Below, piece by piece: positions 12,543-16,880 of a DNA stretch of 64,000 nt. Below the pieces are notes generated by a model. That model had not been told where the DNA came from, did not search any database, and saw only the letters and a program-made list of their open reading frames with translations. Source of the stretch: Cerasicoccus sp. TK19100 (lineage in GTDB: Bacteria > Verrucomicrobiota > Verrucomicrobiia > Opitutales > Cerasicoccaceae); NCBI RefSeq assembly GCF_027257155.1, contig NZ_JAPWDU010000007.1, positions 186,001-250,000 on the forward strand. Direction: 5' to 3'. Made by a program: the position numbers and the translations under genes. Numbering within the stretch: position 1 is the stretch's first letter; each line of letters opens with the position of its first letter.

Positions 12543-12977
12543 TTAGGCGATTGAGGTCGGTGGTTCCTCTAGATTACCGGCGTAAAGTAGAGCTCCAACC
12601 GCGATTATGCTTAATGGCCAGACCATAAACATATACCCGGCGAACATGATGATTAGGGCGATGGCGAAGCAAGTAAGTGAGATTTTTATACTCATACGGT
12701 ATGCTTTGCGGATCCCCTTTTTTCCAAGACGTTGAACTTTCACTTGGTATTTTTTCCGTCTCTTTTCGAGGATAACTTTCTTTTCGTCACTTGAGCGCAA
12801 CGATAGCAGGTTTATCCCTAGAATCGTCAACATTAGCGCCAGAAATAAATAATCCGAAGTAGGCTCGCCTCCGAGAATTCCCTTACTCACTAAAAAAATG
12901 GTCAAGCCGGTGACCCACATTACCGTTCCTAGCCGACGAATAATTTTGCAAAAAGTCGTGGAGAACCCGTGTAGCAT
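12543..12977 (-). CDS. Small integral membrane protein, unknown function
   Basis: About 144 residues from the ATG at 12977 (MLHGFSTTF). The frame stays open to 13046 but that would overlap the zinc-ribbon gene, so the shorter start is preferred. Hydrophobic segments are seen at about 15-33, 40-58 and a long pair at about 98-135, giving three to four membrane helices. A strongly basic stretch (EKRRKKYQVKVQRLGKKG) between them should face the cytoplasm. The DNA is AT-richer than its surroundings. I do not recognise the family. It is downstream of the CPXCG gene on the same strand, with a 40-base gap. Confidence 0.55.
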   Translation of the reverse strand: MLHGFSTTFCKIIRRLGTVMWVTGLTIFLVSKGILGGEPTSDYLFLALMLTILGINLLSLRSSDEKKVILEKRRKKYQVKVQRLGKKGIRKAYRMSIKISLTCFAIALIIMFAGYMFMVWPLSIIAVGALLYAGNLEEPPTSIA

Positions 12978-13017
12978 AATTCGTTGAATCTTAATTGTAG
13001 CAATTTGTTGCTCAAGC

Positions 13018-13224
13018 TTAATCGCCGATTGCCTCCGCCTCGGCAATGACTTCCTCGCCGTTCAGGTAGAAGCGGATGAGCATGGGGCGGCAGCAGACTT
13101 CGCAGTCGTAGTCCCATTCGGTGGGGACTTCGGTTGCCGCCGGGCCGGGGATGGAAAACGGTTCGAAGCAAGTGGGGCAGGTGACTTGGCAATAGTCGGC
13201 GTGCATGGTTGGCGTATTGTTCAT
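13018..13224 (-). CDS. CPXCG-motif cysteine-rich zinc-ribbon protein
   Basis: A 68-residue protein with two CxxC knuckles, CQVTCPTCFEPF and CEVCCRPM, and the acidic C terminus (GEEVIAEAEAIGD) typical of the Cys_rich_CPXG family. It probably binds one zinc; no enzymatic role is known for the family. The start could be the ATG at 13224 (MNNTPTMH) or the internal ATG at 13206 (MHADYCQ). Neither has a good ribosome-binding site and the conserved part begins at the second. Confidence 0.75.
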   Translation of the reverse strand: MNNTPTMHADYCQVTCPTCFEPFSIPGPAATEVPTEWDYDCEVCCRPMLIRFYLNGEEVIAEAEAIGD

Positions 13225-13856: not shown

Positions 13857-14678
13857 CTACGCACCGGTTGCCGATTGGCGGGCCTCGCGTGGGGTGCAGC
13901 CGCGGACGCTGCGGAAGACTTTGGAGAAGTAGCTCGCGCTGCCGTAGCCGACGCGCTCGGCGATGGCGGAAATGGAGTCGCTGGTGGCGGCCAATCGCTG
14001 GCGGGCGATCTCGATGCGGTGCTGCTCCAGGTAACGCATCGGGGTGATGCCGACCTCCTGCGGAAACAGGTGCGCGAGGCGGGAGGGGGAGATGCCGGAG
14101 GCGCGGGCAATGTCGTCCAGGGTCAGCGGTTCGCGGTAGTGGTCGCAGATGTAGGCCATGGCGCGGCGCACCCGGGAATCAAGCCGCTGGGCGGTCTTGT
14201 TGGGGTTGGCGGAGTCGCACCACAGGATGAGCTGCTCCAGCAGGCTCATGGCCAGCGCCTCGCGTTGGGGCAGGGGGCCATGGAGGGTTTTCACCATGTC
14301 GTCGAAGCAGGATTTTACACGATTGGAAACGGTTTCATCCAGCCGTTTCAGCATGCCAAAGCCCTGATCCAAGCGCGGCCAATTCAGCCAATCAATCCAC
14401 TCGGATCGCGGTTGAAAGCATACCCAGTAATGCAGCCAGGGGCCCCGGGATTCATCATTCTCGTAGGTTTGTGGCGCACCGGGTTCAAAGAGGAAAATGC
14501 TGTGGGCGGCGGCTTCGACGGTTCCATTGGCCAGGTGCATGTTGGCAACACCACCGGCGGTGTATTCAAGCAGCCAGTAGGAGAAGCCCTGCGGCCGGCG
14601 AATGCGGTTGGGCGCGTCGCGGTCGTGCCGACCGAGGCCGGCATAGATCATTCGGGGGCTGCTGATGATTTTTGCCAT
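13857..14678 (-). CDS. AraC-family transcriptional regulator
   Basis: About 273 residues from the ATG at 14678 (MAKIISSPRM); the frame is open upstream but would run into the divergent gene. The N-terminal half (about 1-150) is a cupin-like sensor domain (FSYWLLEYTAGGVANMHLAN, IFLFEPGAPQTYEN) as in sugar-responsive AraC proteins. The C-terminal 100 residues carry two helix-turn-helix motifs: LTLDDIARASGISPSRLAHL and ISAIAERVGYGSASYFSKVF. It is divergent from the oxidoreductase fusion gene at 14751, with 72 bases between. Control of that gene by this regulator is the obvious inference. Confidence 0.9.
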   Translation of the reverse strand: MAKIISSPRMIYAGLGRHDRDAPNRIRRPQGFSYWLLEYTAGGVANMHLANGTVEAAAHSIFLFEPGAPQTYENDESRGPWLHYWVCFQPRSEWIDWLNWPRLDQGFGMLKRLDETVSNRVKSCFDDMVKTLHGPLPQREALAMSLLEQLILWCDSANPNKTAQRLDSRVRRAMAYICDHYREPLTLDDIARASGISPSRLAHLFPQEVGITPMRYLEQHRIEIARQRLAATSDSISAIAERVGYGSASYFSKVFRSVRGCTPREARQSATGA

Positions 14679-14750
14679 GTAGCAAGATTTTGCTAGTTTA
14701 TGACCAGACTGGCCCTTGTTTTCAAGTCGGCAATGCGATAGACTAACGAC

Positions 14751-16781
14751 ATGATTGAAACTTCCCCCGTCTCCGACGCTTCCGCTAAAATTCTCAACTG
14801 GGGCGTCATCGGCCCCGGTCGCATTGCCCGCAAGTTTGCCGCCGGTTTGGCGGGTTCCGACACGGGCAAGCTCTATGCCGCGGCCAGTCGCGACGCAGCC
14901 CGTGCGCAGGCGTTTCTCGACGAGTTTGGTGGCGGTCAGGCATTTGGTGATTACCAGGCGATGCTGGACGATTCGCAGCTCGATGCGGTGTACATTGCCA
15001 CGCCACATCCGATGCACGCCGAGTGGGCGATCAAGGCCGCGCGCGCCGGTAAGCATGTGCTTTGCGAAAAGCCCGCTACGTTAAACTACGGGGAAGCGCT
15101 GGCAGTGGTCGATGCCGCTCTGGAGAGTGATGTGGTCTTCCTGGAAGCATTCATGTATCGCTGCCACCCGGCGACGGCGAAGCTCTATGAACTGGTTAAG
15201 GAAGGTGCCATCGGGCAACTGCAGCGTATCCGTGCGTCGTTTGGCTTTGATAGCGGCGAGAACCATGAGGGTCGTCTCCAAGCGAATGCACTGGGCGGCG
15301 GCGGCATCCTGGATGTCGGTTGTTACCCGATCTCGATGTGCCGCTTGTTGGCGGGGGCCGTGCAGGGTAAGGCGTTCGATAATCCGATTGAGCTGAAGGC
15401 CATTGGCCACCTCGACGAAAAGACCGGCGTGGACACCTGGACGAGTGCGGTCTTGAAATTTGAGGGCGACATCATCGGCGAGTGCTTTTGCGGTGTGCGC
15501 GCTGGTGCGGAAAACGACGTCACCGTTTACGGAACCGAAGGAACGATTCGCGTAGAGCAGCCTTGGTTTGCCGGTGGCAAAATAGTCCTGCAGCGCAAGG
15601 GCAAGGAGCCCGAGGTGATCGACGCCAGCTCTGAGCGGCACCTGTATACTTTTGAAGTGGAGGCCGTGCATCAGCTGGCCCATGGCGGCGGCTTGCTCAA
15701 CTGTGCGATGAGCATTGAAGATACCTTGGGCAACATGCAGACGCTGGACCGCTGGCGCGCCGAGATCGGTCTGCAATATGAAATGGAGAAGCCCGGCCCG
15801 GAATTTCCCTGCGTGTATGGCAAGCTGACCGGCGCGGGCAGTGCGATTCCCAAGGGGGAAATCCCCGGCGTCGCCAAGCCGGTGTCGCGCCTTTGCATGG
15901 GCCACCCCGGCATGCAGCGATCGTTTACCGACGTGGTTCCGCTTTACGACGCCTTTTTCGAGCTCGGGGGTAACGTGTTTGACGACGCCTCGATCTACCG
16001 TGGCTGGGGTGCCAAGCCGAGCTTTGCCGGCCGCTGGATGTCGATGCGTGGCGTTCGTGAGCAGTGTGTGATGATCGACAAAGGCGCACATGCGCCCAAC
16101 TGCACTCCGGACTACATGACCGACGAAGTCGACCGCCTGATAAAGACCAATTTCTGCGGCTACATCGACCTTTACATGATGCACCGCGACAACCTCGATG
16201 TGCCGGTGGGCGAGTTTGTAGACGTGCTTGGCCAATTGATCAAGTCGGGCAAGATCCGTGCCTATGGTTTCTCGAATTGGACGGCGGTGCGCTTCGACGA
16301 GGCGGCGGCTTACGCCAAGGCCAATGGCATACCCGCGCCGGTCTGCTTGTCGAACCAGCTGAGCCTCGCCGAGATGGTGAACCCCGTCTGGCCGGGCACC
16401 GAATCGTGCTCCAATTCGGAGTTCCAGGCATGGCTCGCCGAGCGAAATTTACCGCTGATCCCGTGGTCGAGCCAAGCGGCTGGATTCTTCACCGATCAGA
16501 GCGCTCCGGATCGCAAAGAGAACAAATTGCTCGTCCACGGTTACTACAGCGAGGCCAACTTCGAACGTAAAAAACGCGCGAAAAAACTGGCCGAAGCAAA
16601 AAACGTGATGCCGATAAATATCGCCATGGCATGGGTCATTGGGCAGTCGTTCCCGACTTTCCCGTTGATCGGTCCGCGGACGATTACGGAGCTGCGTACC
16701 TCGTTAACCGGCCTTGAAGTAAGCCTAACCCCCCAGGAGATGGATTGGCTGAACCTTAAGAGCGACTCCATTCAGGCTTAG
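14751..16781 (+). CDS. Fusion protein: Gfo/Idh/MocA oxidoreductase plus aldo/keto reductase
   Basis: One 676-residue frame joins two NAD(P)-dependent enzymes. Residues 1 to about 330 are Gfo/Idh/MocA: Rossmann motif GVIGPGRIARKF (18-29), catalytic EKP at 106-108, and the C-terminal fold with GGGGILDVGCYPISM, close to dihydrodiol dehydrogenase-like enzymes. Residues about 350-676 are an aldo/keto reductase with the D-Y-K-H tetrad visible in NVFDDASIYRGW, VMIDKGAH and DLYMMHRDN; GFSNW and IPWSSQAAGFF follow the family. The two halves could oxidise and reduce the same sugar or polyol in sequence. No frameshift or internal stop separates them. The divergent AraC gene is the likely regulator. Substrate unknown. 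Confidence 0.9.
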   Translation: MIETSPVSDASAKILNWGVIGPGRIARKFAAGLAGSDTGKLYAAASRDAARAQAFLDEFGGGQAFGDYQAMLDDSQLDAVYIATPHPMHAEWAIKAARAGKHVLCEKPATLNYGEALAVVDAALESDVVFLEAFMYRCHPATAKLYELVKEGAIGQLQRIRASFGFDSGENHEGRLQANALGGGGILDVGCYPISMCRLLAGAVQGKAFDNPIELKAIGHLDEKTGVDTWTSAVLKFEGDIIGECFCGVRAGAENDVTVYGTEGTIRVEQPWFAGGKIVLQRKGKEPEVIDASSERHLYTFEVEAVHQLAHGGGLLNCAMSIEDTLGNMQTLDRWRAEIGLQYEMEKPGPEFPCVYGKLTGAGSAIPKGEIPGVAKPVSRLCMGHPGMQRSFTDVVPLYDAFFELGGNVFDDASIYRGWGAKPSFAGRWMSMRGVREQCVMIDKGAHAPNCTPDYMTDEVDRLIKTNFCGYIDLYMMHRDNLDVPVGEFVDVLGQLIKSGKIRAYGFSNWTAVRFDEAAAYAKANGIPAPVCLSNQLSLAEMVNPVWPGTESCSNSEFQAWLAERNLPLIPWSSQAAGFFTDQSAPDRKENKLLVHGYYSEANFERKKRAKKLAEAKNVMPINIAMAWVIGQSFPTFPLIGPRTITELRTSLTGLEVSLTPQEMDWLNLKSDSIQA

Positions 16782-16805: not shown

Positions 16806-16880
16806 TGGTGCGGGTGGAGGGAATCGAACCCTCATCCCAAGTGTGGAAGACTCGTATACTAGCCGTTGTACTACACCCGC
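16806..16880 (-). tRNA. tRNA-Gly (anticodon TCC), CCA encoded
   Basis: Read on the minus strand, the 75 bases fold as a cloverleaf: acceptor GCGGGTG pairing with CACCCGC, anticodon stem CGAGT/ACTTG with one G-T pair around the loop CTTCCAC (anticodon TCC), and the T arm GAGGGTTCGATTCCCTC. The 3' CCA is encoded (16806-16808). It resembles E. coli tRNA-Gly(UCC). It reads toward the convergent end of the oxidoreductase fusion gene. Confidence 0.95.

What the first reader, a model, noticed from the sequence alone, without database searches (positions are those of the whole stretch)
14751..16781. Natural fusion of a Gfo/Idh/MocA oxidoreductase with an aldo/keto reductase
Both halves keep their catalytic residues (EKP at 106-108; D-Y-K-H tetrad in the second half) and are joined in one 676-codon frame, divergent from an AraC regulator. 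Two redox enzymes in one chain could oxidise then reduce the same sugar, recycling the cofactor internally to epimerise or isomerise it. I do not know of a characterised member with this order.
Basis: partly seen in the sequence, partly recalled or inferred. Interest (0 to 1): 0.6.

Follow-up and report, generated by a model that had tools for sequence, protein, structure and literature searches.

The report
Widespread two-headed sugar oxidoreductase
One bacterial gene makes a protein that joins two complete sugar-handling redox enzymes in a single chain; the same joined protein occurs in about ten bacterial phyla but, as far as I could find, nobody has tested what it does, and its second enzyme has been dropped several times during evolution.

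Summary
Window 14751-16781 (+) is one uninterrupted 676-codon gene: a Gfo/Idh/MocA oxidoreductase (about 15-347), an ordered linker, then an aldo/keto reductase (about 375-676). Catalytic residues are intact: E106-K107-P108, D188, Y192; D411, Y416, K444, H478. It is neither an artefact nor rare. The host is a Cerasicoccus (Verrucomicrobiota); full-length relatives occur in ten phyla and on rhizobial plasmids, and in 85 aligned fusions these residues are essentially invariant. No solved structure found spans both halves, no curated family covers the fusion, and ten literature searches found no characterised member. In rhizobia it ends two unrelated sugar ABC-transporter operons whose binding proteins are closest to galactose/beta-galactoside binders; one operon has a GH42 beta-galactosidase. 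In Verrucomicrobiota the AKR half was cleanly lost several times, leaving an intact Gfo enzyme, so the Gfo half evidently works alone. Best reading: a cytoplasmic, probably NADP(H)-linked, bifunctional oxidoreductase for a galacto-type sugar, with the Gfo half as core and the AKR half as an optional complementary reductase. The proposed internally recycling epimerase is possible but unproven; the repeated AKR losses argue against an obligate cycle.

The parts
14751..16781 (+). Gfo/Idh/MocA - aldo/keto reductase fusion gene, 676 aa
14793..15791 (+). Gfo/Idh/MocA half (about residues 15-347): G21-x-G23 Rossmann loop, S46-R47, E106-K107-P108, D188-x-G190-x-Y192
   Evidence: Pfam; conservation; fold match to Gfo structures
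15792..15872 (+). inter-domain linker (about residues 348-374), ordered in the model (block pLDDT 84-96)
15873..16778 (+). aldo/keto reductase half (about residues 375-676): tetrad D411, Y416, K444, H478; conserved motif K444-G-A-H447-x-P449-x-C451-x-P453
   Evidence: Pfam
13857..14678 (-). divergent AraC-family regulator (273 aa, start corrected); 207 bits (over-long ORF) to the arabinose AraC model against a cut-off of 208
14680..14725 (.). intergenic block conserved in four Cerasicoccus species; putative operator/promoter between AraC and the fusion

Best explanation
A cytoplasmic, probably NADP(H)-dependent, bifunctional sugar oxidoreductase. SHOWN: two complete half-enzymes in one chain, both with intact and nearly invariant catalytic residues, in a conserved architecture. 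INFERRED: the divergent AraC-family regulator senses the sugar and switches the gene on. The Gfo half, the core activity, transfers a hydride between a galacto-configured sugar (D-galactose, L-arabinose or a beta-galactoside is the leading guess) and NADP, as Gfo-type aldose dehydrogenases do. The AKR half is a complementary carbonyl reductase that can use the NADPH so formed, on the keto product or on a second sugar molecule. The fusion keeps the pair in a fixed ratio and lets the cell process the sugar with little net redox change. The AKR half is an accessory: lineages that lost it keep the Gfo reaction and must regenerate the coenzyme elsewhere.
For: Domains and intact motifs. E106, P108, G190, Y192, D411, Y416, K444 and H478 in 85 of 85 fusions, K107 and D188 in 84 of 85. 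pTM 0.89 for the whole chain, suggesting a defined domain arrangement. S46 invariant and R47 at 90% or more, as in NADP-type Gfo enzymes (family knowledge). Rhizobial operons: AraC-family regulator | binding protein-permease-permease-UgpC-fusion and ROK regulator | binding protein-permease-permease-ATPase-(GH42)-fusion. The two binding proteins are only 25% identical over 228 residues while the fusions are 61% identical. Their nearest solved relatives are AcbH, 178-190 bits, described as exclusive for beta-D-galactopyranose (Licht et al. 2011, cited in PMC7682106), and 6H0H/Bal6GBP, 102-108 bits, a beta-1,6-galactobiose binder (PMC8106489). The Cerasicoccus AraC is nearest the arabinose AraC model. 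One of the closest characterised AKRs is DepB, the NADPH-dependent reductive half of a two-enzyme epimerisation (PMC6056672).
Against: Ligand inference from binding proteins at this distance is weak, and the rhizobial fusions are only 43-47% identical to the window protein. Contexts outside rhizobia and Cerasicoccus are mixed: GH1, GH3, a weak GH127-like match, a putative cyclase, a phosphoribosyltransferase, tRNA-related genes. Nothing distinguishes coupled from uncoupled activities. Coenzyme preference of the AKR half was not established.
Confidence: 0.5

Rival explanations
1. Intramolecular redox epimerase or isomerase: the Gfo half oxidises one hydroxyl of a sugar to a ketone, the AKR half reduces it from the other face with the same NADPH, giving the epimer with no net redox change.
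For: In the rhizobial AraC-type operon the fusion is the only catabolic enzyme next to the transporter, which fits a self-contained conversion. Both active sites are intact. One of the closest characterised AKRs, DepB, is the reductive half of a two-step epimerisation. The Gfo half looks NADP-type.
Against: The AKR half was lost repeatedly while the Gfo half stayed intact, so the cycle is not obligatory for the Gfo half's function.
Confidence: 0.2
2. GFOR-like sugar dismutase: the Gfo half oxidises one aldose to a lactone and the AKR half reduces a second sugar to a polyol, with NADP(H) cycling between the halves.
For: The Gfo half matches glucose-fructose and aldose-aldose oxidoreductases in sequence and fold, and many AKRs reduce aldoses (family knowledge).
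Against: GFOR does both half-reactions in a single Gfo active site, so an AKR would be unnecessary; there is no evident signal peptide in the N-terminal sequence, unlike periplasmic GFOR.
Confidence: 0.2
3. Two uncoupled or sequential activities (for example two successive reductions of a dicarbonyl, or unrelated sugar and aldehyde reductions), fused only for co-expression.
For: Gfo half viable alone at the same neighbourhood; varied gene neighbours.
Against: Strict retention of order and an ordered linker across phyla, with pTM 0.89, suggests that the joining matters.
Confidence: 0.3

Closest known systems
Gfo/Idh/MocA family: dimeric dihydrodiol dehydrogenase, KijD10, 1,5-anhydrofructose reductase, glucose-fructose and aldose-aldose oxidoreductases; 4had of Rhizobium etli (unknown function)
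   Same: Rossmann domain plus C-terminal alpha/beta domain, EKP, D-x-G-x-Y; TM-score 0.86-0.92 on the target's length for the best matches
   Different: All matched chains cover only the Gfo half; identity to the Gfo half is 20-30%; none listed carries an AKR domain
Aldo/keto reductases: DepB (8hwn), 7utf, perakine reductase, AKR6D1, IolS
   Same: Aldo_ket_red domain with the D-Y-K-H tetrad aligned
   Different: Free-standing proteins; only 52-76 bits to most of them; the invariant K-G-A-H-x-P-x-C-x-P motif is not shared by the aligned ones
Uncharacterised rhizobial 'aldo/keto reductase' or 'Gfo/Idh/MocA' records, such as R. etli p42b WP_011427608 and a S. meliloti 1021 pSymA homologue
   Same: Same two-domain architecture, 43-47% identical over the full length
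   Different: Last gene of a sugar ABC-transporter operon; in Cerasicoccus the gene has a divergent AraC gene and no transporter next to it
DepA/DepB deoxynivalenol epimerisation
   Same: Oxidation then AKR reduction on the same carbon (works-like comparison only; PMC6056672)
   Different: Two separate proteins; DepA is not a Gfo enzyme (own knowledge)

Membership tests
Gfo/Idh/MocA oxidoreductases | Two-domain fold above the Pfam cut-offs | tested here: met
   PF01408 and PF22725 above gathering scores; Foldseek TMt 0.92 to 4had
Gfo/Idh/MocA oxidoreductases | Catalytic E-K-P and C-terminal-domain D with Y or H | tested here: met
   E106-K107-P108, D188, Y192; nearly invariant in 85 fusions
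Aldo/keto reductases | Aldo_ket_red barrel domain | tested here: met
   PF00248 9.7e-38 over 16-284 of 291; alternating strands and helices in the confident model
Aldo/keto reductases | D-Y-K-H catalytic tetrad | tested here: met
   D411, Y416, K444, H478; 85 of 85
Aldo/keto reductases | NADP(H) use | not testable with these tools
   needs coenzyme binding or kinetics
NCBIfam equivalogs (myo-inositol, xylose, levoglucosan dehydrogenases and others) | score above the curated cut-off | tested here: not met
   best 103.5 bits against a cut-off of 355
Glucose-fructose oxidoreductase | single Gfo active site doing both half-reactions on tightly bound NADP, exported | tested here: inconclusive
   no twin-arginine or signal-like N-terminus seen in the sequence; bound coenzyme not testable
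Oxidation-reduction epimerase (Dep-like) | both half-reactions on the same carbon with opposite facial selectivity | not testable with these tools
   needs product analysis

The most novel reading that the evidence does not exclude
A self-contained, single-chain sugar epimerase or isomerase for a galacto-configured free sugar or glycoside: the Gfo site oxidises and the AKR site reduces with the same coenzyme, replacing a kinase or nucleotide-sugar route, spread across about ten phyla.
Probability: 0.15. Interest if true: 0.65.

Novelty: new variant of a known kind. Interest (0 to 1): 0.35.

Why it matters
Both enzyme families are textbook, but the conserved pairing in one chain is an unstudied architecture found in hundreds of genomes, including model rhizobia. 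The rhizobial operons suggest a substrate class and an easily tested phenotype, and natural Gfo-only versions of the same gene give a ready comparison for what the second enzyme adds. If the halves are coupled, it would be a cofactor-neutral sugar converter of practical interest.

Tried and rejected
Assembly or frameshift artefact: rejected. Decayed half: rejected. Membership in a curated NCBIfam equivalog: all far below the cut-offs. A solved structure spanning both halves: none in the 50 listed Foldseek hits or in the phmmer list. Ten literature searches, including Pfam accession pairs and S. meliloti locus tags guessed from map position, found no study of the fusion. A universal gene neighbourhood: not found; greedy ORF calling in GC-rich loci gives spurious antisense ORFs, so neighbour statistics were not used quantitatively. 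Fusion-specific residues in the Gfo half that might mark the domain interface: only position 346 stood out. Active-site facing: not testable, because model coordinates and PAE were not available. One annotated region gave no genes for S. meliloti 1021.

Full report
OBSERVATION. Window 14751-16781 (+) is one open frame of 676 codons. Pfam places GFO_IDH_MocA (15-131), its C-terminal domain (143-267) and Aldo_ket_red (390-665) in it, all with strong scores. EKP is at 106-108. The C-terminal Gfo motif D188-V-G-C-Y192 and the AKR tetrad D411, Y416, K444, H478 are present. The neighbouring AraC-family gene is divergent; its ORF is called too long, and the plausible start is at 14678, giving 273 aa and a 72-bp intergenic region. 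A 46-bp block in that region (14680-14725) is conserved in four Cerasicoccus species, which suggests a shared regulatory site; this is inference.

WHOSE GENOME. The window lies in a 5.07-Mb, 13-contig assembly. Its same-genus genomes match Cerasicoccus frondis, C. maritimus and C. arenae (Verrucomicrobiota), with 71-78% identical full-length fusions. In the whole genome no second fusion was found; the other 17 matches are single-domain, mostly Gfo proteins at about 25-37% identity.

DISTRIBUTION. A scan of one genome per species gave 483 related places, of which the best 80 were kept. Nearly all are full-length fusions at 45-78% identity, from records named as Planctomycetota, Verrucomicrobiota, Chloroflexota, Armatimonadota, Lentisphaerota, Pseudomonadota, Elusimicrobiota, Abditibacteriota, Portnoybacteria and Omnitrophota. 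Many are MAGs, so single-record phyla are less sure, but isolates (Cerasicoccus, Ktedonobacter, Ktedonospora, Tengunoibacter) are included. On plasmids it is common in Rhizobium and Sinorhizobium, at about 46% identity over 97-99% of the query, including S. meliloti 1021 pSymA.

CONSTRAINT. In 85 aligned fusions E106, P108, G190, Y192, D411, Y416, K444 and H478 never vary, and K107 and D188 vary once each. The AKR half also has an invariant K444-G445-x-H447-x-P449-x-C451-x-P453 motif that the aligned solved AKRs lack; its role is unknown. S46 is invariant and R47 nearly so, an arrangement that in Gfo enzymes goes with NADP(H) (family knowledge).

STRUCTURE. AlphaFold2 on 70 sequences gave mean pLDDT 92.1 and pTM 0.89, with an ordered linker. 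For a two-domain chain such a pTM implies a defined relative placement; coordinates and PAE were not available, so the geometry of the active sites could not be measured. Foldseek against the PDB returned Gfo-family chains covering one half only among the 50 listed.

EVOLUTION. Trees of the Gfo half do not place the fusions in one clade. Single-domain Gfo proteins nest inside them repeatedly: nine changes, five forced by well-supported branches, and one clade rejected at p-AU 2e-10. For example the single protein of L120 is 78% identical to the Gfo half of fusion L109. In the AKR tree the fused AKR halves group together, though with weak support and few outgroups, and close free-standing AKR relatives were rare in the phylum. 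The single-domain versions keep all checked Gfo motifs, no AKR remnant was found near them, and in Opitutaceae related loci with and without the AKR share flanking genes. The simplest reading is an old fusion followed by several clean losses of the AKR half; repeated re-fusion of the same AKR is not formally excluded.

CONTEXT. Two different rhizobial operons end in the fusion. Type A: AraC-family regulator, binding protein, two permeases, UgpC-like ATPase, fusion. Type B: ROK regulator, binding protein, two permeases, ATPase, in R. tumorigenes a GH42 beta-galactosidase, fusion. The binding proteins of A and B are only 25% identical while the fusions are 61% identical, so the enzyme is the shared element. 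The nearest solved relative of B is AcbH (178-190 bits), described as exclusive for beta-D-galactopyranose (PMC7682106, citing Licht et al. 2011). That of A is 6H0H/Bal6GBP (102-108 bits), a beta-1,6-galactobiose binder (PMC8106489). Binding-protein specificity shifts easily, so this is a lead rather than proof. The Cerasicoccus AraC regulator is nearest to the arabinose AraC model and falls one bit short of its cut-off; L-arabinose has the galacto configuration. Elsewhere the neighbours are mixed.

MECHANISM. The evidence supports two active half-enzymes in sugar catabolism, the Gfo half being the indispensable one. Internal coenzyme recycling is attractive, but its strict form (an epimerase needing both sites) is weakened by the repeated AKR losses. 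The distinction between epimerase, dismutase and uncoupled activities cannot be made from sequence.

VERDICT.

Noticed in passing
14680-14725: Intergenic block conserved in four Cerasicoccus species between the AraC gene and the fusion; in the window it holds a TAGCAA-GATT-TTGCTA inverted repeat that is not kept in all species.
   Followed up: partly
16806-16880 (-): tRNA-Gly (tcc) lies directly downstream of the fusion, on the opposite strand.
   Followed up: no
L097:3636-7034: A Verrucomicrobia MAG has the two halves in the same frame split by a stop codon in the linker region; natural split, pseudogene or sequence error not decided.
   Followed up: partly
L162, L163, L165, L167 and L056:2431-3636: A conserved gene of about 400 aa without a Pfam match lies downstream of the fusion, or of its Gfo-only version, in Opitutaceae-type loci.
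   Followed up: partly
L017: One divergent fusion is flanked on both sides by further Gfo proteins.
   Followed up: no
L150:8857-9837: A Listeria record labelled as a plasmid (2.9 Mb, probably a chromosome) encodes a free-standing relative of the AKR half with no related Gfo gene in the stretch examined.
   Followed up: no
12543-13046 (-): 167-aa ORF, apparently membrane-spanning, with no Pfam match.
   Followed up: no
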